Origin: Aurantiacibacter poecillastricola
GTDB lineage: Bacteria > Pseudomonadota > Alphaproteobacteria > Sphingomonadales > Sphingomonadaceae
Direction: 5' to 3'
NCBI RefSeq assembly: GCF_030730945.1
Contig: NZ_JAVAMS010000013.1
Location: 1 to 16,707 of the forward strand
DNA: 16,707 nt
This document shows, piece after piece, positions 3,280 to 16,550 of the stretch. Within the stretch, counting starts at the first letter, position 1. Each line of letters begins with the position of its first letter. The notes below the pieces were generated by a model. It did not search any database, had not been told where the DNA came from, and saw only the letters and a program-made list of their open reading frames with translations. A program made the translations under genes and the position numbers.

Positions 3280-3313
3280 GGCGGTCCGTCCCTTCCGGGA
3301 CGGGCCGCCTTTT
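3280..3313 (+). terminator. Rho-independent terminator after the ParB-like gene
   Basis: The 13-base arms GGCGGTCCGTCCC (3280-3292) and GGGACGGGCCGCC (3297-3309) pair with a single G-U wobble around a TTCC loop, and four T follow. It closes the helicase/parB unit. The 111 bases between it and the stop of the minus-strand PIN gene (3314-3424) hold nothing I can recognise, and they mark the change from high-GC backbone to the lower-GC cargo. Confidence 0.85.
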
Positions 3314-3424
3314 CAATGTAAGATTTTGGGCCACTTGCTGACCGTCTCGTTTGGGAAAGAACGAGAAGCAAAGCTGCCCTTTCGTCCACATCATCGATTG
3401 GGGAAGAGCACGCAAGAATGCTGG

Positions 3425-4048
3425 TCATTTGGCTTCCCAAGAACCCTTCCGACTCTTGAACCCCGGAAGGCTATTGCACGCGACGGCGCGTTCAAATCCG
3501 ATCAACCTTGCAACCGCCTCACAGCGCTCATCATCAATCCTCATTCGACCTTCTCGAAGGGCGAGATAGACGGCCTCGATATACCCGTCACCGACGAGCT
3601 CAATCTGCACCGCTGGATGCACCAAAAGGTCCAACGACCAAGCGGGGGCTTGGCCGTTCATCAGGTCTTGGGCTCGTGCCCGACCCTTTCGCTCATCGAC
3701 AACGGGCAGAAAACCCTGTGACACCGCCACTGCAATCGTAGCTGCTTCGCCGTCATCTAGCGAACCGGGAGAACGGATCATCGTCTCAAAAAGACGAGCC
3801 GCTGCATCATCGATCTGGACGACCTTGACGACGTTCTCCGATATCAGGCGTTGGATGAACCCGTTCTCGCCATTGGCGTGACTAGTTTCATGGTTGAGTT
3901 CCGTAACCACCGTTTCAGTCAGAACAATGTCGTTTGGAATGGCCCGAAGCACCTGTTCGCCAAACGTACAAGCGTGCAGATTGATCAGCACGCTCGTATC
4001 GGGGACTAATGGGATCAGCGTATCAGAGAGGGAGCTTAAACAGGTCAT
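3425..4048 (-). CDS. PIN-domain protein (putative RNase)
   Basis: This 207-aa protein has the layout of PIN-fold nucleases, which cut RNA in a Mg2+-dependent way. Four acidic positions match the active site: D17 in VPDTSVLINL, E50 in VVTELNHET, D99/E101 in LDDGEAATIAVA and D118 in LPVVDERKGRA. The start is ATG 4048, nine bases downstream of GAGGAG (4063-4058); an in-frame TTG at 4066 would lie upstream of that site. The gene overlaps the 3' end of the XRE/ImmA gene by 26 bases, so the two are probably translationally coupled. The partner's HTH and protease domains would fit an antitoxin or regulator role, and this protein would then be the effector. The last 60 residues are not part of the core PIN fold that I recognise. 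The nuclease function is inferred from motifs only. Confidence 0.8.
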   Translation of the reverse strand: MTCLSSLSDTLIPLVPDTSVLINLHACTFGEQVLRAIPNDIVLTETVVTELNHETSHANGENGFIQRLISENVVKVVQIDDAAARLFETMIRSPGSLDDGEAATIAVAVSQGFLPVVDERKGRARAQDLMNGQAPAWSLDLLVHPAVQIELVGDGYIEAVYLALREGRMRIDDERCEAVARLIGFERAVACNSLPGFKSRKGSWEAK

Positions 4049-5210
4049 CCGTTTCGCTCTCCTCAAGTTCCATTTGATCGAGCAGAGCGCGCAGCTCTAG
4101 CCGCTTGATTTTAAGAAGCTCGGCCAGTTGTCCTTCCGACATCAGATCGCGTTTCCAGGCGGTGTAGGCCATGAAGCTCATGCGATGGGACACCGGCCGG
4201 TTTGCATCATCTTTTGCTGGGTCGGGCTTACTTGAAGCATCGCCCAGCACTTCACGCACCTGTGCGGGAGTAATGCCACCATGGGCTTTCAGCTTGTCCC
4301 ATGCTCCCCGCTTAACAAGTCCGAGCTCTTCCAGCCTCCTCACACAAGCTTCGCGTGAAATGCGGAAATGGCGCGCCTGTACGATGATTGGCCTGCGGGT
4401 AATCTCAGAGCCAGCGGTGAGCTGACGCCACGCCGCTTCAAAGCTCTTGCGCGGTGAGAGAAAGGCGCGCCCAAACGCATGAGCATATCGCTCTTCGCGT
4501 GACTGAAACTTCTCATTTTCTTCCAGAACTTCTGGCGCCTGACGAGTGCCAACGAAATGCCCCAGCTCGTGAGCTGCGGATTGAATACGCCGCTCCAGTG
4601 GGAAGTTCGCATTCAAGAGAATGCAAGCTCCCAAAGTTTGGTCGTAGGTGAAGAGCGCATCCACCTTCGAACCCTTCGACAGGCGTCGCTGGTAGAGTCG
4701 GATGCCGAGATCCAACTCCATCAAGCTGAAGATATCGGCGATTGGGCCAGAGCCCAATCCGAGCCAGTCGCGCAGCTCTTGCGCGTGCTGTTCTGCCAAT
4801 TCGACGACATCGCCAGTGTTGATGCCCCTTTCGGGCGGGTAATTCTTAGGCCGCTCAATGCCGAGAATGTTCTCCAACTCAACCTCAGCTCGAACGAGAT
4901 CATTCAGCAGTTGCACTGCCTCGCCGGTATGCTCATCCTCGGTTTCCCGCAGTCGGCGGAAGCGTGGCACAAGGTCAGTATGGACTGCCTCGCGGCGCAG
5001 CAGGGCATTCACCGATACCCCATAATGGTTCGCAAGCGCCTGAAGCTCCTGAATACGAACCCGCCTATCCCCCTTTTCAATTGAAACGAGGGTGGGGCGA
5101 GACATGCCAATTACCTTGGCTGCTTCGTCCTGACGGATTTTTGCGCTTTCGCGGGCAAGGCGAAGGCGGCGACCGATCTCTTGTGCGGTCAGCTCGTTTA
5201 GATCAGTCAT
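4023..5210 (-). CDS. XRE HTH / ImmA-IrrE (M78) metallopeptidase fusion
   Basis: This 395-aa protein has an N-terminal XRE-type HTH at residues 10-70 (IGRRLRLARESAKIRQDEAA, MSRPTLVSIEKGDRRVRIQE) and an ImmA/IrrE-like zinc protease at about 140-260. The catalytic HELGH is at 214-218, and an EERYAHAFGRAFL segment near 239-251 supplies the likely third zinc ligand. The C-terminal 130 residues are helical and unassigned. Known members of this fusion family cleave phage repressors or stress regulators (ImmA acts on ImmR, IrrE on DdrO), often relieving repression after damage. The start at ATG 5210 has GGAGG five bases upstream. It overlaps the QueC-like gene by 8 bases and the PIN gene by 26 bases. 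It is probably the regulator of this four-gene unit, binding its promoter and losing repression through its own or a partner's cleavage. That role is an inference. Confidence 0.88.
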   Translation of the reverse strand: MTDLNELTAQEIGRRLRLARESAKIRQDEAAKVIGMSRPTLVSIEKGDRRVRIQELQALANHYGVSVNALLRREAVHTDLVPRFRRLRETEDEHTGEAVQLLNDLVRAEVELENILGIERPKNYPPERGINTGDVVELAEQHAQELRDWLGLGSGPIADIFSLMELDLGIRLYQRRLSKGSKVDALFTYDQTLGACILLNANFPLERRIQSAAHELGHFVGTRQAPEVLEENEKFQSREERYAHAFGRAFLSPRKSFEAAWRQLTAGSEITRRPIIVQARHFRISREACVRRLEELGLVKRGAWDKLKAHGGITPAQVREVLGDASSKPDPAKDDANRPVSHRMSFMAYTAWKRDLMSEGQLAELLKIKRLELRALLDQMELEESETDDLFKLPL

Positions 5211-6585
5211 GGCGACCTCCCTTCGTCCATAGTTGCAGAAAACTCTCTTCGCCCTGGTCCTGCTCGAATGCTGCCCATTCTTTCGAATGTTGCACGAGCA
5301 TGTCCCTAAGCTGGCCGGTCACGTCATCTACTGACGATCCAACGGCTTCAGCGATTTGGAATGCGTGAGGCTTCAGGGCGGTATCTGGCACACTGGCCAA
5401 ATCGGCCAGTTGTTGCAGGTGCCGCGCGCCCATATAGCCGTAATCGTAAAGGGTGTTGGTGGCCCTGAAGCTGTTTTGCTTCGGCAGGGCATCACTAAAT
5501 CGCGCGGCCCGCAAATTGGCAATGGCATAATTCTCGGGTGGCTCGACAACGCCGGCGGCGTGCAAGCTCATCCGGCGCAATAGGCACGCCGCACAAATGC
5601 CGCATTGGCGTACTTTCCCTCCCACGCGCACGTTTGCCCGCTGCTGCCAGCACGAGCGGGTATCAATCACGTGCTGGGGCTTTACGCCTGGCCTTTGCAA
5701 AAACGCCGCGATGGTCTGCCCTTTGGTATGCCAGAGGCGCGGTTGCTCATAGGTGAGATCGATACCAAGCAACGCCTTTATGAAGCGCTCCATCTTTCTG
5801 AAGAAAGTCGGGTGGTTCCGGTAGTCTGGATAGATGTTGAGCAGGGGGAGCAACACAGGCCCCAGAGCGCCCTGTCCACTTTCAGGCACAATGATCCGGC
5901 TGACATTTGACAGCTGCGAGGCGATTGCAATCACCGCCGCAAATTTGAAACCACGCGAACGGGCGCTGTTCTCGGGATTCGGCTTCACCTTCACATCAAA
6001 GGGCAGGCGGTCGAACGGCCGCTCATCTTTGCGCAGGCGTTGCTTGAATTTCGACACACGCACGCTCACGGCAGTGTCATTCTCGTTGTAGAGGCCCGAA
6101 ACACTTAGCGAGTCCAAGCCTTCGCTGTACGCAATGGCGAACGCCTTTTGCTGGTTCGGGAATAGCGGGCCTTGTCGCGGCTTGCTTGTTGCTGCGCCCT
6201 CATGGCGCACGAAGCTAAAACGCCACTCGTCACCAGTCAGATGGCGCAGGGTATCGCAAAGACCTTGTTGAACAGTCGCATCCTGCCAGGTCGCAAGTTC
6301 AATCACGGGCACAGTCACATGAAAGTGCCGTGCCCAATGTGCACTGCCGCGTCCCCAGCGGCGATCTGCAAATTCGACGGCCGCGCAGACAATCAACAGG
6401 TCGTGATGAATGTTGCTCCAGCCTTCATGGCAGTAGCTGTCAAAGATGTCCTTATCGCACTTAATCTCTGAGCCGATGGTCGCATAAACGCGCCCCTTCG
6501 CGCCTCGACGCGGAACCGCTTGCCCCGCCTCAAGTATGGTTAGGTCACGTTCAGAAAACTTAGAAAATTCACTCATTACAATCAC
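5203..6585 (-). CDS. QueC-like 7-cyano-7-deazaguanine synthase-family protein, Qat/CBASS type
   Basis: This 460-aa protein (GTG 6585; 457 aa if ATG 6576 is used) has the two QueC signatures. An N-type PP-loop, AYSEGLDSL, is at residues 152-160. A zinc site comprises C312 (DTRSCWQQR) and the triplet C328, C331 and C334 in QCGICAACLLRR; SRGFKFAAVIAIA (209-221) also fits. QueC uses ATP and ammonia to turn carboxydeazaguanine into preQ0. This protein is about twice the length of housekeeping QueC (roughly 230 aa), with a 145-residue N-terminal extension and a 110-residue C-terminal tail, as in the QueC components of Qat and type IV CBASS defence. No queD, queE or queF lies nearby, so queuosine synthesis is unlikely. 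The canonical SGGxDS loop reads SEGLDS, an unusual substitution. The GTG overlaps the upstream stop by four bases, and the 3' end overlaps the XRE/ImmA start. Confidence 0.85.
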   Translation of the reverse strand: MIVMSEFSKFSERDLTILEAGQAVPRRGAKGRVYATIGSEIKCDKDIFDSYCHEGWSNIHHDLLIVCAAVEFADRRWGRGSAHWARHFHVTVPVIELATWQDATVQQGLCDTLRHLTGDEWRFSFVRHEGAATSKPRQGPLFPNQQKAFAIAYSEGLDSLSVSGLYNENDTAVSVRVSKFKQRLRKDERPFDRLPFDVKVKPNPENSARSRGFKFAAVIAIASQLSNVSRIIVPESGQGALGPVLLPLLNIYPDYRNHPTFFRKMERFIKALLGIDLTYEQPRLWHTKGQTIAAFLQRPGVKPQHVIDTRSCWQQRANVRVGGKVRQCGICAACLLRRMSLHAAGVVEPPENYAIANLRAARFSDALPKQNSFRATNTLYDYGYMGARHLQQLADLASVPDTALKPHAFQIAEAVGSSVDDVTGQLRDMLVQHSKEWAAFEQDQGEESFLQLWTKGGRHD

Positions 6586-6872
6586 AGAATTGGGTCATCG
6601 AGACCGGTTCTTTTTTTTAGGTCCAGCTTGAACGCGTTCTTATCGCAGCTCTTCACGGCCTCCTGAATGCGCGCACGGTCAAGGCTCTTCGAGACTTCGC
6701 CCAATCCTTCATTGAGACGGTCGAGCTGGTCTCTGTGCATCGGGCCTTCCCGGTGCGCCTCTAGCCCAGCTTCCTGAATACGGGTGAGCGTCTTGCCGAT
6801 ATTGGTTTCGACACATGCGTTCAAAGCCTTGTCGATTGCATCGCGAGAGCTCTCACCATCGTGCAGCCTCAT
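6582..6872 (-). CDS. Intact 3' ORF of the broken small gene (96 aa, hypothetical)
   Basis: This is the longest part of the small gene with its own ATG. It is a charged, helical 96-aa protein beginning MRLHDGESSRDAIDKALNAC and ending TGLDDPIL, with heptad-like spacing in IQEAGLEAHREGPMHRDQLD. No Shine-Dalgarno sequence precedes ATG 6872, and protein-like sequence continues upstream in the same frame. The ATG is therefore more likely an internal methionine than the original start, but a shortened product could be made from it. Its stop TGA overlaps the GTG of the QueC-like gene (6585-6582), so translation is probably coupled. No family is recognised. Confidence 0.5.
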   Translation of the reverse strand: MRLHDGESSRDAIDKALNACVETNIGKTLTRIQEAGLEAHREGPMHRDQLDRLNEGLGEVSKSLDRARIQEAVKSCDKNAFKLDLKKRTGLDDPIL

Positions 6873-7090
6873 GGCGACTTCACGTTGGAGGTCATCCGAA
6901 AATTCCGACTTATCGTGCTTTTCGAAGATACCCTTGATTGATCCCTTTGGATCGAGATCAAGCTGCCCATCCGCACCATAACTCTGCAGGTCGCGGATCA
7001 GTCCGGATCTTCAGCCTCATTTTGTACAGCTTCCGCAAACCGCCTTGAGCGACTGTCGAGCTTCAAATTCTTGAATGGGCCGTCGGTCAT
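6582..7090 (-). pseudogene. Small protein upstream of the QueC-like gene, reading frame broken by one shift
   Basis: A well-placed start (ATG 7090, with GGAGGACGGG immediately upstream) opens a frame beginning MTDGPFKNLKLDSRSRRFAE that stops after 30 residues at 6998. The next frame continues without an ATG, GTG or TTG start through LIRDLQSYGADGQLDLDPKG and IKGIFEKHDKSEFSDDLQRE into the 96-residue ORF that ends at 6582. The upstream segment has protein-like composition, which a random frame would not be expected to show. The parts join by a -1 shift around 7000, giving about 168 residues. I do not recognise the family. Position and coupling make it the natural partner or substrate of the QueC-like enzyme. 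The break may be a true mutation, a deletion of a short segment, a programmed frameshift or a sequencing error. Confidence 0.6.
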
Positions 7091-7110
7091 CCCGTCCTCC
7101 TGCGACGGAC

Positions 7111-7164
7111 CATTACGTGTATATTCTGACAATGTCAATATATTAGCAGAATATCCTGACATTA
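7111..7164 (-). promoter_or_regulatory. Promoter/operator region of the QueC-like cargo operon
   Basis: A perfect inverted repeat TGACA-A-TGTCA lies at 7127-7137. A second TGACATT at 7158-7164 pairs as an inverted copy with AATGTCA (7131-7137). The words ATATTCTGACA (7121) and ATATCCTGACA (7151) repeat directly at 30-base spacing. On the minus strand the first repeat overlaps a perfect -35 box TTGACA (7139-7134), with a weak TAATGG 17 bases further. The start at 7090 lies shortly downstream. An XRE-type regulator, such as the one encoded in the operon, is the likely ligand, which is inferred. Confidence 0.5.
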
Positions 7165-7277
7165 GATAGGACATCCGCGATGGACGTGAAAGCTCAAGTT
7201 GCTGAAAGGTACTGAAAGCTGAAGGAAATCGCTTGTGCCAGTGTGGCGGAACGTCGGGCTTTTGGAGGCTCGCGTGT

Positions 7278-7384
7278 GACCCCAGATCTGAATGGAGAGA
7301 GTATAACCGTCGCCCCTTAGAGGGGAGGGAGCTTTGCTCTTCCTGAGCCGGGGCATGTCCGTCCCGGCGATCAGGAGAACTCCC
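7278..7384 (+). promoter_or_regulatory. Leader of the ArdC-like gene with Shine-Dalgarno-occluding hairpin
   Basis: The block GACCCC-AGATCT-GAATG-GAGAGAGT (7278-7302) and GGAGGGAGC (7324-7332) match the leader of the ParB-like gene. TCCTGA (7341-7346) and GCCGGG (7347-7352) pair with CCCGGC (7363-7368) and TCAGGA (7371-7376) around a 10-base loop, with a GA bulge. The second arm covers the Shine-Dalgarno sequence AGGAGA before ATG 7385. The stretch 7165-7277 upstream of the block holds nothing I recognise. Confidence 0.55.
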
Positions 7385-12332: not shown

Positions 12333-13589
12333 ATGCAAGCAAATGGCTATCTGCTACCAGCGAATGAAGCCACGAATCATGCCGCAACACGATCCGGTGA
12401 GGGGCGCGGGAGTGGTGAAAAGGCAAAGCCGTCCAACCGGGTTAGGCTCAACGGCAACATCGTCCGACGCAAACCGGGCAAGCGCATCCGCGAGTATTGG
12501 GATGTTGACCTGCCGGGCTTTGGCCTGCGGGTAAATCCTGGCGGCAGGCGGACATGGTTCGTGCTGTTCCGCCAGCGCGGCAAGCTGCGGCGGGTTTCGC
12601 TGGGGACCTCCCGCGACATCTCACCCGCCACAGCCCGCCGCCTCGCGAGGGCGAAGCTGGCAGAGGTCACTCTCGATGGGTTGCCGACGCGCAAGAAGGC
12701 CCGCGCTGCGCAGAAGAGCGATGCACCTTTGCTGCGCGACTACGCCGAACGCTTCTGGGCCGACTACGCGCGGCACTGGAAGCCTTCGACCCGCAAACGC
12801 AACGAGAGCGCCATCTTCAAGGAAATCCTCGGTGCGTTTGGCGATCGGCGCGTCGACGATCTGGCGAAGGGCGACATCCTGTTCTGGCGCGACAGCTTTG
12901 TCGAACGCCCCGGCGTGTTCAACCGCACCTTGCCGGTGTTCTCGGTGATGATGGGATACGCGGAGCGCCTAGGCTTGCGTCCCCGTGGTTCCAATCCCTG
13001 CAAGGGCACGCCGCGCTACAAGCGCAAACCGATGGAGCGGTTTCTGTCGCCACATGAATACGCGCGGCTAGCCACGGCATTGCGGGACTACGAGGCGGAG
13101 CAGCCGCTCTATGTCACGGCGATCCGCCTGCTGATCTTCACCGGCGCACGTTGCGGAGAGATCGAGCAACTGCGCTGGGAATGGGTTCAGGAACCGCGCC
13201 TGATGCTGCCTGATAGCAAGACCGGAGCGAAGATCGTCTATCTCAACCGGCAGGCTATCGATGTGATTGATTCGCTCCCAGACCGGAAAGCAACCGGCCT
13301 GCTGTTTCCCTCGTTCCGCAATCCCGACAAGCCGATCACGCTCGGCATCCATTGGTCGAAAATCCGCAATTGCGCAGCATTGCCGGATGTGCGCCTACAT
13401 GACCTGCGCCACAGCTTTGCCTCGGTCGCGATCCGGGACAACATCTCGCTCATGGTCATCGGCAAGCTGCTGGGCCATGCGCTGGCAGAAACGACGACCC
13501 GATACGCGCACCTGTCCGACGAGATCGTCGCCGATGCCGCCGAGCGCGTATCCGGCTCTATCGCGCGCCTGATCGGAGTGGAGCAATGA
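12333..13589 (+). CDS. Tyrosine recombinase/integrase 1
   Basis: This 418-aa integrase has an arm-binding-like N-terminus (about 40-110, with LPGFGLRVNPGGRRTWFVLF), a SAM-like core-binding domain (130-215, LLRDYAERFWADYARHWKPS) and a catalytic domain (235-410). All expected residues are present: R273 (FTGARCGEIEQL), K296 (DSKTGAK), H356 and R359 (LHDLRHSF), H382 (KLLGHAL) and the nucleophile Y391 (TTTRYAHL). It would catalyse site-specific insertion or excision of the element through a covalent phosphotyrosine. Length is normal for element integrases. The first 35 residues are low in hydrophobics and may be an extension from an early start. The gene overlaps the next recombinase by ATGA (13586-13589), so the two are co-translated. 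Its ribosome binding site is folded in a hairpin. Confidence 0.92.
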   Translation: MQANGYLLPANEATNHAATRSGEGRGSGEKAKPSNRVRLNGNIVRRKPGKRIREYWDVDLPGFGLRVNPGGRRTWFVLFRQRGKLRRVSLGTSRDISPATARRLARAKLAEVTLDGLPTRKKARAAQKSDAPLLRDYAERFWADYARHWKPSTRKRNESAIFKEILGAFGDRRVDDLAKGDILFWRDSFVERPGVFNRTLPVFSVMMGYAERLGLRPRGSNPCKGTPRYKRKPMERFLSPHEYARLATALRDYEAEQPLYVTAIRLLIFTGARCGEIEQLRWEWVQEPRLMLPDSKTGAKIVYLNRQAIDVIDSLPDRKATGLLFPSFRNPDKPITLGIHWSKIRNCAALPDVRLHDLRHSFASVAIRDNISLMVIGKLLGHALAETTTRYAHLSDEIVADAAERVSGSIARLIGVEQ

Positions 13590-14827
13590 ACGCGCTGACC
13601 CTGCGTGGGATCGTCGCCGAGGAACTGGGCAGTCTCCGGCTCCATGTGATCGGCAAGTGCAGTGGCCTGGGTGAGCTGCGCAAGACGTGCTGGACGCGCG
13701 AACTGCCGGGATTTGGCACCCGGCATTATGCGAGCGGACGCAAGGTCTATATCGTCCAGGCGCGAATGGAAGGGCGCACCCGCACGGTGACGATCGGCAA
13801 CGCCAAGGTGCTGAGCCGCGTGCAGGCGATGGATGTGGCGCGCCGAGTGCTGCTGCGCGCCCAAACTGGCGACAATCCGGCGGAGGAGCGCAAGCGGTTG
13901 CGCAAGGTTCCGTCCTACCGCGACTTCCTGAAAACCTACTGGGAGCGCGTGTCGCCGAGATGGAAGCCTTCAACGCTCTACACCCATCGCTACTACAAGC
14001 GGAAATACCTCGACCGGGCATTCGAAGGGCTGTTCCTCGACGAGATCGAGGAACGCCATGTGCAGGAATGGTTCAACCGGATCACCAACACGGGCGGCCC
14101 GGGTGCTGCCAATCGTTGCGGGGAAATCCTTCGCGCCATGTTCAACAAGGCCGAGCAATGGGGCGTGCGGCCCGAAGGCTCGAACCCGTGCCTCTACATC
14201 CGCAAGAACAAGGGGCGGAAGTGCGAGCGCTTCCTGTCCGATCAGGAGTTCCGACGGATTGGCGAAGTGATCGACCGCCACCGCAAGACCTTCCCACTGC
14301 ATTGCGCTGCGATCAGCCTGCTGATCCTGACCGGCTGCCGCAAGTCGGAGATCACCTGCCTCAAATGGAACGAGGTGCGGGGAAGGCGCTTGCTTCTCAC
14401 CGACAGCAAGACCGGCCCGCGCACGGTCTGGCTGGCCGAAGCGGCAGCGACGATACTGCACGCCCTGCCGCGCCGGGAGAAGCAGCGTTACGTGTTCTGG
14501 AATCCGGCCACCCAGCGACCGATCACGGATATTGGCAATCTGTGGAGCAAGCTGCGCGACGAGGCAGGCCTTCCCGGCGTCCGCATCCACGATCTACGGC
14601 ACAGCTTTGCCAGCCATGCCGCCGCTCATTCCGAAACCCTGCCGATGATCGGCAAGCTGCTCGGTCATGCCGATGTGCGCACGACGACCCGCTACGCACA
14701 CCTTGACGATGGTCATGTCATCGAGGCAGCGCAGCGTATCGGCGACCTGATCGAGCGCAGCATGAGCGGTTCATATTCATTGAACCATAACACTATGTAT
14801 GATAGCGGGCCATTGCTGCATGACTGA
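13586..14827 (+). CDS. Tyrosine recombinase/integrase 2
   Basis: This 413-aa integrase follows the first with a 4-base overlap. It repeats the same domain plan: an arm-binding-like region (35-95, ELPGFGTRHYASGRKVYIVQ), a core-binding domain (105-200, SYRDFLKTYWERVSPRWKPS) and a catalytic domain with R252 (LTGCRKSEITCL), K275 (DSKTGPR), H335 and R338 (IHDLRHSF), H361 (KLLGHAD) and Y370 (TTTRYAHL). Both genes share RWKPST/HWKPST, GSNPC and the catalytic boxes at clearly diverged overall sequence, so they look like old duplicates rather than a recent copy. Both active sites are complete, so they may act as a heteromeric pair. The 3' end (about 14765-14827) is AT-rich compared with the body and overlaps the toxin start. 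Confidence 0.92.
   Translation: MNALTLRGIVAEELGSLRLHVIGKCSGLGELRKTCWTRELPGFGTRHYASGRKVYIVQARMEGRTRTVTIGNAKVLSRVQAMDVARRVLLRAQTGDNPAEERKRLRKVPSYRDFLKTYWERVSPRWKPSTLYTHRYYKRKYLDRAFEGLFLDEIEERHVQEWFNRITNTGGPGAANRCGEILRAMFNKAEQWGVRPEGSNPCLYIRKNKGRKCERFLSDQEFRRIGEVIDRHRKTFPLHCAAISLLILTGCRKSEITCLKWNEVRGRRLLLTDSKTGPRTVWLAEAAATILHALPRREKQRYVFWNPATQRPITDIGNLWSKLRDEAGLPGVRIHDLRHSFASHAAAHSETLPMIGKLLGHADVRTTTRYAHLDDGHVIEAAQRIGDLIERSMSGSYSLNHNTMYDSGPLLHD
14769..14803 (+). promoter_or_regulatory. Possible promoter/operator of the toxin-antitoxin pair inside the integrase 2 end
   Basis: An AT-rich patch in GC-rich DNA contains the inverted repeat GTTCA-N7-TGAAC (14769-14773, 14781-14785) and a -10-like TATGAT (14798-14803), with a weak TTCATT 16 bases upstream. 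Toxin-antitoxin operons are usually autoregulated through such palindromes. The evidence is only sequence resemblance. Confidence 0.35.
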
Positions 14828-15218
14828 GAACCCGCGCATCCGCATCTACGCCAACCGCTGGTTCGCCAAGTTTGCGGCAAAGGAAAAGATCAGCGATGCC
14901 ACGCTTGCTGATGCCGTGCATCGGGCCGAAGCCGGCCTGATCGATGCCGATCTTGGCAGCTGCCTCGTCAAGCAGCGCATCGCGCGCCAGGGCGGAGGCA
15001 AGTCGGGCGGCTATCGCTCGATCCTGATCTTCCGCTCGGGCGAGCGGGTCATATTCGTGTTTGCCTTCGCCAAGAGCGATAAGGCGAACCTGAGTGCGGC
15101 GGAACTGAAGGTCTATCGCAAAGCGGCCAGCATCATGCTGGAACTGGGCGAAGACCAGATCGAAACGGAAGTTGAAGCAGGCCGATTGGTCGAGGTGAAA
15201 GACGATGAGCAAGGCTAG
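14820..15218 (+). CDS. Type II toxin, RelE/HigB-like family
   Basis: This 132-aa protein shows NRWFAKFAAKEKISDATLAD (12-31), LIDADLGSCLVKQRIARQGG (40-59), the core strand SGGYRSILIFRSGERVIFVF (62-81) and AFAKSDKANLS (82-92). This order is typical of a RelE/ParE-superfamily group of cytotoxic translational repressors. Such toxins cut mRNA at the ribosome. ATG 14820 is chosen because family members start just before this block. An in-frame ATG at 14799 would add seven residues (MIAGHCC) of doubtful value. It overlaps the end of integrase 2 by 8 bases and the antitoxin by 14. The toxin-first order is that of HigBA-like systems. The C-terminal 30 acidic residues extend beyond the core fold. Confidence 0.85.
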   Translation: MTENPRIRIYANRWFAKFAAKEKISDATLADAVHRAEAGLIDADLGSCLVKQRIARQGGGKSGGYRSILIFRSGERVIFVFAFAKSDKANLSAAELKVYRKAASIMLELGEDQIETEVEAGRLVEVKDDEQG

Positions 15219-15534
15219 GGCAAAGACCTACAAGAGCGAGGCGATGGCCGCAGTCCACGAGATGATGGAAGGCCTCCATGACGCGGGCAGCATCGACAAG
15301 CGTACCATGCGCGAGTTTGACGAGGCCTGCCTTGCGCCTGCGCCCGTCCTGTCACCGGACGAGATCAAGGCTATCCGCGAAGCGGAGCATGTCTCGCAGC
15401 CGGTGTTCGCTCGTTATCTCAACGTGTCGAAGAACCTAGTGTCGGACTGGGAGCGCGGAGCGAAGAAGCCGGGAGGCCCGGCACTGCGGCTGTTGTCGAT
15501 TATCCAGCGTAGTGGGCTGGAGGCGGTGGCGTAA
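15205..15534 (+). CDS. XRE-type antitoxin/transcriptional regulator
   Basis: This 109-aa protein has a C-terminal helix-turn-helix at about 53-89 (EIKAIREAEHVSQPVFARYL, NVSKNLVSDWERGAKKPGGP), as in the HigA/NadS-like antitoxins that accompany RelE/HigB-like toxins. The N-terminal 45 residues (SKARAKTYKSEAMAAVHEMM) probably contact the toxin. It neutralises the toxin and represses the operon in the usual model. The ATG lies inside the toxin frame, with GAGGTGA upstream, so expression is coupled. It could instead also regulate the recombinases, since all four genes overlap in a chain. Confidence 0.87.
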   Translation: MSKARAKTYKSEAMAAVHEMMEGLHDAGSIDKRTMREFDEACLAPAPVLSPDEIKAIREAEHVSQPVFARYLNVSKNLVSDWERGAKKPGGPALRLLSIIQRSGLEAVA

Positions 15535-15712: not shown

Positions 15713-16153
15713 TTGTTCGGCAAGCCCGAAGCTAGTCCGCCTCCCACGATCATTCGAGATCTGAACGGCCTGAAGCCTCACCTAGCACAGGCCGGTTATT
15801 CTATTGAAGACAGGCCGCCCGTCGAAATCCTTGGTGTCCCGATGGAACGCGTCCGCATGAACCAAGCAGGAGTAGTCTCTGCAGTTGGATTCGGGGGCGG
15901 GTATTTTCATATAGTGCGAATGATCGGGCTCACGCGGACATTGACCCCGAAGGAGGTCGTCGATTTTAACGCAAGTGTCCAAATTTTCAACGTAACGCCC
16001 AATGATGAACCCCCGAGCGCTATCATAAAAACGCATGTTCCAGCGCGACATGGCGCAGCGCTTCAAACGATAATAGACTTGCTTTCATATTCCGATGACG
16101 CAGTAAAAAAGCTTATTTCAGTCGTTGGCCAAAGTAGTGTGAAGGGTATATAA
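15713..16153 (+). CDS. YbjN-like small protein, first of two
   Basis: The 146-aa reading starts at TTG 15713. The same frame is open back to 15668, and an upstream reading L-I-F-K-S-L-FGKPE from CTG 15698 looks natural, so the true start may be non-ATG and slightly earlier. The two ATGs just upstream (15688 and 15694) are in another frame that stops after 15 or 13 codons. The body (GYSIEDRPPVEILGVPMERV, GGGYFHIVRMIGLTRTL, VVDFNASVQIFNV, IIDLLSYSDDAVKKLISVVG) has the strand and helix order of YbjN/type III chaperone-like folds. Such proteins are thought to act as chaperones or regulators. It lies one base before the next gene, and codon use is much less GC-rich than to the left. The fold assignment is tentative. 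Confidence 0.6.
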   Translation: MFGKPEASPPPTIIRDLNGLKPHLAQAGYSIEDRPPVEILGVPMERVRMNQAGVVSAVGFGGGYFHIVRMIGLTRTLTPKEVVDFNASVQIFNVTPNDEPPSAIIKTHVPARHGAALQTIIDLLSYSDDAVKKLISVVGQSSVKGI

Positions 16154-16154
16154 A

Positions 16155-16550
16155 TTGGAAAATACGTTTATCCAGACGCAAGATTTGAGTTCACTTGATA
16201 AGACAATTAGAAAAATCGGCATTGAATGCATCGAAGGGCGGGAAAATGGTGTTCCCGTCTTAACTGTTACAGTTGGACGCATTCTGTTTATGGCCATGAT
16301 TCACAATCAGTGTCTAAAGCTCATCTATCGCTTACGAGAAGATAATTTTCAGGGCGGCGTAGCATTCGCCAACCACTGGAACTCGATGAATTTTCTTGGC
16401 ACGTTAATTCCAATGACTGACGGTTTCGTAATGAAATATGAAAGCCTTGTAAGTCACGGTATTATTGTGGGAAATCTCAAAGATACGCTGACATTGTTTG
16501 CGGCTTCTGTAGATAAATTTCTGGACGAGTGGTTCACGCTCACATCGTAG
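16155..16550 (+). CDS. YbjN-domain protein, second of two
   Basis: This 131-aa protein starts at TTG 16155, eight bases after GAAGGG, immediately behind the first YbjN-like gene. It follows the YbjN pattern: LDKTIRKIGIECIEG, VLTVTVGRILFMAMIH, LKLIYRLREDNFQGG, then the conserved helix FANHWNSMNFLGTLIPMTDG, a strand KYESLVSHGIIVGNLKDTL and a final amphipathic helix FAASVDKFLDEWF. The family is small, soluble and linked to stress or sensory regulation in enterobacteria, but has no settled activity. Translational coupling with its neighbour and similar size suggest the two form a heteromeric pair. The low GC suggests origin outside the backbone. Confidence 0.68.
   Translation: MENTFIQTQDLSSLDKTIRKIGIECIEGRENGVPVLTVTVGRILFMAMIHNQCLKLIYRLREDNFQGGVAFANHWNSMNFLGTLIPMTDGFVMKYESLVSHGIIVGNLKDTLTLFAASVDKFLDEWFTLTS

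What the first reader, a model, noticed from the sequence alone, without database searches (positions are those of the whole stretch)
3425..7090. Candidate undescribed system: small protein + QueC-like enzyme + XRE/ImmA protease + PIN nuclease
Seen: four same-strand genes with overlapping junctions, lower GC than the flanks, inserted opposite to the backbone between the parB terminator and the ardC leader. Known: extended QueC-like proteins are components of Qat and type IV CBASS defence; XRE/ImmA fusions relieve repression after damage or infection; PIN proteins are RNases. Inferred: a sensor-protease regulates a QueC-like modifier and an RNase effector, with the small protein as modification partner. 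None of the QatA, QatB or QatD genes, nor any CD-NTase or TGT-like gene, is present, so the combination differs from the systems I know.
Basis: partly seen in the sequence, partly recalled or inferred. Interest (0 to 1): 0.88.

Follow-up and report, generated by a model that had tools for sequence, protein, structure and literature searches.

The report
QueC-based four-gene defence cassette
A mobile bacterial cassette of four genes, nearly always found together, looks like an unnamed anti-virus system in which a queuosine-type enzyme tags the front end of a small partner protein, next to a switchable repressor-protease and an RNA-cutting enzyme; the copy in this window carries a broken partner gene.

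Summary
The operon is real and a conserved unit. Searched from the QueC-like protein, 47 loci share one order: small protein, QueC-like enzyme, XRE/ImmA, PIN. In 72,556 plasmids the QueC-like and XRE/ImmA proteins of this clade mark the same 25 records; PIN marks these plus one. The small protein diverges to 12% identity yet starts M-[S/T]-D-G-P, paralleling the MGGS and MGTS partner starts of type IV CBASS and Qat. The enzyme has the QatC body but keeps the Y-x-D-x-R base site of QueC. qatA, qatB and qatD are absent. A conserved near-palindrome precedes the small gene. The cassette sits between parB and ardC, where sister elements carry CBASS, TIR-Argonaute, other cargo or nothing. Here the small gene is broken by a 61-nt deletion, not a programmed frameshift. 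Best reading: an unnamed third QueC-based defence type, with N-terminal tagging of the small protein, repressor-protease control and a PIN RNase. Tagging, sensing and anti-phage action are inferred. The open-access papers searched do not describe it.

The parts
3314..7319 (.). Cargo segment between parB and ardC; approximate boundaries of the variable site
   Evidence: blastn of the window to 16 sister stretches: homology stops near 3314 (3310-3382) and resumes at 7318-7319 in the 11 other-cargo or empty stretches that reach ardC
7156..7162 (-). Upstream half-site ATGTCAG of the presumed operator
   Evidence: read; a TGTCAG half-site stands about 74 nt before the small gene in many relatives (by eye, not counted)
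7126..7138 (-). TTGACATTGTCAG, a palindrome overlapping a -35-like TTGACA, 48 nt before the small gene start: presumed operator of the XRE/ImmA protein
   Evidence: 36 of 42 relatives within 1 mismatch, 100 shuffles give a mean of 0.01 and a maximum of 1 of 42; exact TGACANTGTCA in 18 of 43; no promoter scan was run
6998..7090 (-). 5' piece of the small-protein gene (30 codons, starts MTDGPFKN), ends in a premature stop
6582..7004 (-). 3' piece of the small-protein gene, out of frame with the 5' piece after a 61-nt deletion
5203..6585 (-). QueC-like enzyme of QatC type, 460 aa (GTG start; ATG also possible at 6576)
   Evidence: QatC models 6e-33 (PADLOC) and 5e-36 (NCBIfam, 124 of 280 bits needed); fold match to QatC 9y01
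4023..5210 (-). XRE HTH - ImmA/IrrE (M78) metallopeptidase fusion, 395 aa; H214, E215 and H218 invariant among 26 sequences
   Evidence: Pfam Peptidase_M78 1.6e-15, HTH_3 2.3e-12; invariance
3425..4066 (-). PIN-domain protein, 213 aa; D23, E56, D105 and D124 invariant among 25 sequences
   Evidence: Pfam PIN 0.0074 (below cut-off), PADLOC PDC-S70 3.8e-10

Best explanation
The locus is a mobile, autoregulated defence operon built around a QatC-type QueC enzyme. Shown: a conserved four-gene unit, an invariant start of the small protein, conserved catalytic and nucleobase-site residues in the enzyme, a conserved near-palindrome before the operon, and residence in a site that holds known defence systems in some sister elements. 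Inferred: (1) the enzyme uses ATP to join a 7-carboxy-7-deazaguanine-type base to the N-terminus of the small helical protein, exposed as Ser/Thr-Asp-Gly-Pro after loss of Met; (2) the XRE/ImmA fusion represses the operon at the palindrome and is released by its peptidase on infection or DNA damage; (3) PIN is the RNase effector, armed or restrained by the tagged small protein and/or XRE/ImmA. In this window the tagging arm is probably dead, because the small gene is broken.
For: Co-occurrence: all 32 loci found with QueC alone carry XRE/ImmA, 31 carry PIN and the other contig ends first; over 47 loci XRE/ImmA 47, PIN 46. Plasmids: the same 25 records for QueC and XRE/ImmA, 25+1 for PIN. 385 genomes of the class: QueC 3, PIN the same 3, XRE/ImmA those plus one partial. 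Small protein: start motif in 45 of 47 loci and in 120 of the 120 listed of 472 homologues; only M1, D3, G4, P5 invariant in 68 sequences; helical model, mean pLDDT 89.5, last seven residues under 50. Enzyme: 33 residues invariant across 26 members and three QatC; Y252-x-D254-x-R256 aligned by profile to Y-P-D-C-R of solved QueC 2pg3; only significant fold matches QatC 9y01 and 9y02. Operator. Site. Literature: the CdnD MGGS start is the NDG acceptor and the QatB MGTS start is essential (PMC13279940).
Against: No experiment shows phage defence or modification. The acceptor would be Ser/Thr, not Gly as in CBASS and Qat. L036 starts VRDGIWKG, which would not be processed the same way. The small protein shows no detectable similarity to QatB by profile (only 4 QatB sequences, two without their N-terminus) or in the Foldseek list. 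Seven of 13 other cargo segments at the same site gave no defence match (40 of 61 ORFs scanned). A second conserved tail (C-terminal, G-L-D-E-G-P type) is unexplained. The near-palindrome is exact in only 18 of 43. The window's own copy is broken.
Confidence: 0.55

Rival explanations
1. XRE/ImmA and PIN form a toxin-antitoxin (addiction) module of the kind Makarova et al. predicted in 2009, and the small protein and QueC-like enzyme are an accessory layer. The main role would be maintenance of the mobile element rather than phage defence.
For: XRE-COG2856 fusions next to PIN genes are listed as a frequent association (PMC2701414, passages). Many loci sit on plasmids and the window's lies in an element with relatives in 26 of 197 genomes. 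Broken copies hit the small gene or QueC in four loci (window, L032, L043, L030), against one each for XRE/ImmA (L004, two segments in different frames) and PIN (L018, truncated near a contig end); the numbers are small.
Against: In this clade XRE/ImmA does not appear without QueC in the plasmid set (25 of 25), and PIN only once in 26. Exact palindromes lie before the small gene, not before XRE/ImmA, apart from five copies downstream of PIN in Bradyrhizobium. The parB-ardC site carries CBASS and TIR-Argonaute in sister elements.
Confidence: 0.25
2. The invariant start of the small protein is not a base acceptor but a cleavage or recognition tag (for the ImmA peptidase or the enzyme), and the QueC-like enzyme joins something else or modifies another target.
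For: Both ends of the small protein are conserved. Residue 2 is Ser/Thr rather than Gly. The P-loop is S-[D/N/E]-G-L-D-S, not SGGxDS, in 117 of 120 listed relatives.
Against: The strictest conservation in the family is at the extreme N-terminus, as in the proven and proposed acceptors (PMC13279940). XRE/ImmA and PIN have no invariant residue before R38 and D23.
Confidence: 0.3
3. The enzyme makes a free 7-deazaguanine or helps modify nucleic acid, as in queuosine or Dpd pathways.
For: It matches Pfam QueC (24.0 bits, cut-off 22) and keeps Y-x-D-x-R of QueC.
Against: QatC-like N- and C-terminal extensions. The host already has a canonical QueC at 228 bits and a TGT elsewhere. No queuosine or base-exchange gene matched in the operon.
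Confidence: 0.07

Closest known systems
qatABCD (Qat), core QatB-QatC
   Same: QueC core with long N- and C-terminal extensions; 33 invariant residues shared with three QatC; helical partner protein with a conserved start encoded just before the enzyme; only significant fold matches are QatC
   Different: No QatA, QatB or QatD match in the 47 loci held; partner starts [S/T]DGP not MGTS and is not detectably related to QatB; Y-x-D-x-R kept where QatC has S-T-R-T-T; P-loop S[DNE]GLDS; adds XRE/ImmA and PIN
Type IV CBASS (Cap9/Cap10/CdnD), N-terminal deazaguanylation
   Same: QueC-family ligase paired with a protein whose N-terminus is conserved; nucleobase-recognition Y-x-D kept
   Different: No CD-NTase or Cap10 TGT-like match among the window's operon proteins; enzyme 460 aa instead of a median of about 185 (PMC13329287); acceptor Ser/Thr instead of Gly
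XRE-COG2856 (ImmA/IrrE) fusion with PIN, predicted toxin-antitoxin family (Makarova 2009)
   Same: XRE-ImmA fusion followed by an overlapping PIN gene
   Different: Here tied to a QueC-like enzyme and a small protein; QueC is not mentioned in that paper's text
CapH/CapP and PprI/DdrO derepression
   Same: HExxH M78-type peptidase linked to a Xre-type repressor; presumed operator before a defence-type operon
   Different: Repressor and peptidase are one polypeptide; trigger unknown

Membership tests
Qat (qatABCD) | QatC-type enzyme | tested here: inconclusive
   PADLOC QatC 6.2e-33 and NCBIfam QatC 124 bits against a cut-off of 280; best fold QatC: a relative, not within the curated family
Qat (qatABCD) | QatB with MGTS start | tested here: not met
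   partner starts M[ST]DGP in 45 of 47 loci; hhalign to 4 QatB gives probability 0.1 on a 0-100 scale; no QatB hit by tblastn in 47 loci or the window
Qat (qatABCD) | qatA and qatD in the operon | tested here: not met
   no tblastn hit in 47 loci or the window at E 1e-3; both found in 2 control qat loci
Qat (qatABCD) | Thr in place of the Tyr/Asp nucleobase residues | tested here: not met
   D254 and R256 invariant in 27 sequences, Y252 in at least 90%; aligned to Y-P-D-C-R of solved QueC 2pg3
Type IV CBASS | CD-NTase with MGGS start in the operon | tested here: not met
   the window's operon proteins match no cyclase model at E 0.1; other loci were not scanned for cyclases
Type IV CBASS | Cap10 TGT-like gene | tested here: not met
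   no such match among the window's operon proteins; the host's only TGT match lies on another contig
QueC-mediated N-terminal deazaguanylation (works like) | base joined to the partner's N-terminus | not testable with these tools
   needs mass spectrometry
XRE-COG2856/PIN toxin-antitoxin | XRE-ImmA fusion adjacent to PIN | tested here: met
XRE-COG2856/PIN toxin-antitoxin | toxicity of PIN and neutralisation | not testable with these tools
   needs expression assays

The most novel reading that the evidence does not exclude
A third, unnamed class of QueC-based immunity: a QatC-bodied enzyme with a QueC-like base site conjugates a 7-deazaguanine to a Ser/Thr N-terminus of a new helical protein family. 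The tagged protein controls a PIN RNase, and a one-piece repressor-protease switches the operon on during infection.
Probability: 0.4. Interest if true: 0.86.

Novelty: new variant of a known kind. Interest (0 to 1): 0.74.

Why it matters
Protein deazaguanylation is reported for type IV CBASS and proposed for Qat, and what QatC does remains open (PMC13279940). A third family with the QatC body, a QueC-like base site and a partner with a different conserved start would test whether base tagging is a general immune chemistry and whether the acceptor must be glycine. It also ties that chemistry to an RNase and to a repressor-protease switch, and the unit is small, mobile and easy to clone.

Tried and rejected
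Programmed frameshift in the small gene: rejected, because relatives are open and the window lacks 61 nt.

An exact palindrome downstream of PIN in five Bradyrhizobium loci: it falls inside an open, conserved stretch without the flanking half-site, so taken as chance.

Phage carriage: no QueC hit in 50,697 phage records.

QueE in the host: one match of 48.8 bits against a 240 cut-off, left open.

Papers: searches showed no description of this combination. Several listings were capped (25 of 55, 15 of 26, 12 of 22, 8 of 42), and one search returned off-topic papers. The library is open-access only, and the two concurrent QatBC papers cited in PMC13279940 were not seen. Of PMC13329287 I read the outline, a term search and parts 1-2 of 3 of the results; of PMC13279940 the outline, part 1 of 2 of the results, the QatB section and the discussion; of PMC11996544 the abstract; of PMC13092281, PMC10853773, PMC2701414, PMC12255303 and PMC10904395 matching passages only.

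Full report
What is there. On the - strand the window encodes, in transcription order, a small protein, a 460-aa QueC-like enzyme (5203-6585), a 395-aa XRE HTH-ImmA/IrrE peptidase fusion (4023-5210) and a 213-aa PIN-domain protein (3425-4066), with overlapping ends. The G+C content is 0.51-0.59, against about 0.60-0.67 nearby. The small gene is not intact here: it starts at ATG 7090, stops at 6998, and resumes in another frame down to 6582.

The unit. A scan of one genome per species with the QueC-like protein alone gave 32 loci at 49-98% identity in the best segment. XRE/ImmA was found in all 32 and PIN in 31; the contig of L005 ends first. Adding 13 plasmid loci (of 25 clade records) and 2 loci from a class survey, I checked 47 loci. 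The QueC-like gene is present in 47 (2 frameshifted: L030, L032). XRE/ImmA is present in 47 (L005 cut by a contig end; in L004 its two segments lie in different frames). PIN is present in 46 (1 truncated, 1 at a contig end). The small protein is present in 46 by sequence (1 truncated). In the 47th, L036, an ORF of similar size stands in the same place. L032, counted open by the stop-to-stop test, has a frame break near its start.

Co-distribution without conditioning on neighbours. In 72,556 plasmid records the QueC-like protein marks 25 records at 33-51% identity before identity falls below 30% among records mostly annotated qatC (top 40 of 85 seen). The XRE/ImmA protein marks the same 25 at 45-72% before falling below 30% (top 40 of 94 seen). 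PIN marks 26: those 25 and a Microvirga plasmid with PIN alone. The small protein of L001 finds 8 records, all among the 25; it is too diverged to find the rest. In 385 genomes of the class the enzyme is in 3, PIN in the same 3, and XRE/ImmA in those 3 plus one partial match, so the system is rare but coherent. Pairwise identities of the four proteins rise and fall together (Spearman 0.84-0.90 over 22 loci; shared ancestry alone can give this). All four genes are under purifying selection (NG86 dN/dS 0.035-0.18 in 12 comparisons; small gene compared through L001). DNA homology between the window and L003, L004, L006 and L007 covers just the operon (window about 3485/3511 to 7090/7143), so the four genes with their operator appear to move as a cassette.

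The small protein. It is the fastest-changing member (identity down to 12% among 22 loci), yet M-[S/T]-D-G-P-[F/H]-[K/R] opens it in 43 of 45 loci, once per locus and nowhere else in those loci on either strand. The same motif opens it in both later loci. All 120 listed of 472 homologues have [S/T]DGP[F/H/Y][K/R] near the start. In 68 aligned sequences only M1, D3, G4 and P5 are invariant. The C-terminus is also conserved, often of the type G-L-D-E-G-P-x-L. AlphaFold2 gives nine helices at mean pLDDT 89.5 with a low-confidence C-terminal tail and a less certain start. No solved structure matches at E 0.001.

The enzyme. Among 26 family members and three QatC, 33 residues are invariant, including D119, W121, R209, R211, P282, T287, K288 and the cysteines C312, C328, C331, C334. 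Its predicted model matches only QatC of the QatBC complex significantly (9y01 E 2e-13, 9y02 E 3e-12; model pLDDT 73, weakest around the active site). But where the three QatC have S-T-R-T-T-H-P, this family has Y-x-D-Y-R-N-H-P. D254 and R256 are invariant in 27 and Y252 in at least 90%; all three are invariant in a closer set of 44. A profile built here aligns that stretch with Y-P-D-C-R of the solved QueC 2pg3. The published QatC work states that QatC replaced the Tyr/Asp that read the base by threonines and that its reaction is unknown (PMC13279940). So this family combines the QatC body with a QueC/Cap9-like base site. Its P-loop is S-[D/N/E]-G-L-D-S in 117 of 120 listed relatives. The host has a canonical QueC and a TGT elsewhere, so 7-deazaguanine precursors are likely available; QueE was not settled.

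Regulation. TTGACATTGTCAG lies 48 nt before the small gene. Within one mismatch it is present in 36 of 42 relatives with enough upstream DNA, while 100 shuffles give 0.01 on average and 1 at most. The exact palindrome TGACANTGTCA is present in 18 of 43; many relatives have TTGACTTTGTCAG instead, and five have a shorter centre, TTGACATGTCA. It contains TTGACA, which equals the -35 consensus as I recall it; no promoter scan was run. TGTCAG half-sites repeat around it (by eye). The relatives are not independent, but they include loci at about 37-55% enzyme identity. I infer that XRE/ImmA is an autorepressor. CapP/CapH and PprI/DdrO show peptidase-driven derepression, activated by ssDNA (PMC10904395, passages).

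The site. The parB of this element matched 26 of 197 related genomes at 38 places, the window's own included; I fetched 16 of the other 37. Homology to the window ends near 3314 and, where ardC is reached, resumes at 7318-7319. One stretch is L001 with the same operon. Two are empty (36 and 35 nt between the boundaries). Nine hold other cargo before ardC, and four show no ardC within the 8 kb fetched. Of the 61 cargo ORFs I scanned 40 against PADLOC. Six of these 13 segments gave defence matches: NucC/TRIP13/cyclase CBASS in the window's own genome (L074), TIR plus Argonaute (L075), patatin/cyclase/CapP CBASS (L077), Gabija (L078, one of the four without ardC), TIR/cyclase CBASS (L079), E1-like plus CapP (L084). 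Seven gave none, including efflux-like genes. Annotated neighbours in the ten annotated of 13 plasmid loci include Shedu, AbiE, AbiJ, Lit, restriction-modification and reverse-transcriptase genes. There was no matched background control.

Mechanism. The pattern of enzyme plus a partner with an invariant start matches the NDG acceptor of type IV CBASS (MGGS) and the essential QatB start (MGTS) (PMC13279940). I therefore read the small protein as the substrate, tagged on Ser/Thr2 after Met removal; Met is typically removed before small residues. The exception L036 (VRDGIWKG) and the change from Gly to Ser/Thr count against it. PIN, with four invariant acidic residues, is the likely RNase effector. 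Whether tagging arms PIN, or XRE/ImmA restrains it as an antitoxin, cannot be told from sequence. XRE-COG2856 fusions beside PIN were listed as likely toxin-antitoxin or three-part systems in 2009, without mention of QueC (PMC2701414).

Known or new. No qatA, qatB or qatD match lies in the 47 loci or the window, while both control qat loci ring. The NCBIfam QatC cut-off is not met (124 of 280 bits). A 2026 survey of the QueC family describes Qat and Cap9 contexts and finds qatA beside only 34.3% of its QatC cluster; its main text has no occurrence of XRE, ImmA, PIN or toxin as words (PMC13329287; supplements not seen). DefensePredictor's main text does not mention QueC. A search for QueC, XRE, PIN and defense together found no paper. 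I conclude it is an unnamed variant of QueC-based immunity, with the defence function itself still inferred.

Noticed in passing
own genome G000:C12:1199000-1207200 (L074): A second copy of the same integrative element in the window's genome carries a NucC/TRIP13/cyclase CBASS in the site where the window carries the QueC operon.
   Followed up: partly
window 3314-7319: The stretch between parB and ardC is a cargo hotspot in elements of the window's genus and family (unnamed handles), holding CBASS, TIR-Argonaute, other genes, or nothing; in one stretch Gabija follows parB.
   Followed up: partly
L051:4929-5573 (Microvirga plasmid): An orphan PIN of this family without the other three genes; a stand-alone or leftover copy.
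   Followed up: partly
window 12333-14827: Two adjacent, overlapping tyrosine integrases in tandem, likely the element's recombination module.
   Followed up: no
window 14799-15534: A 139-aa ORF overlapping a 109-aa HTH protein with weak MqsA-type antitoxin matches; looks like a small toxin-antitoxin pair.
   Followed up: no
window 15713-16550: Two small ORFs in a stretch falling to 0.42 G+C, without confident family match in PADLOC or NCBIfam; possibly a further low-G+C insertion.
   Followed up: no
L036: Most diverged relative (Roseomonas plasmid): small protein start VRDGIWKG, with a Shedu gene just after PIN.
   Followed up: no
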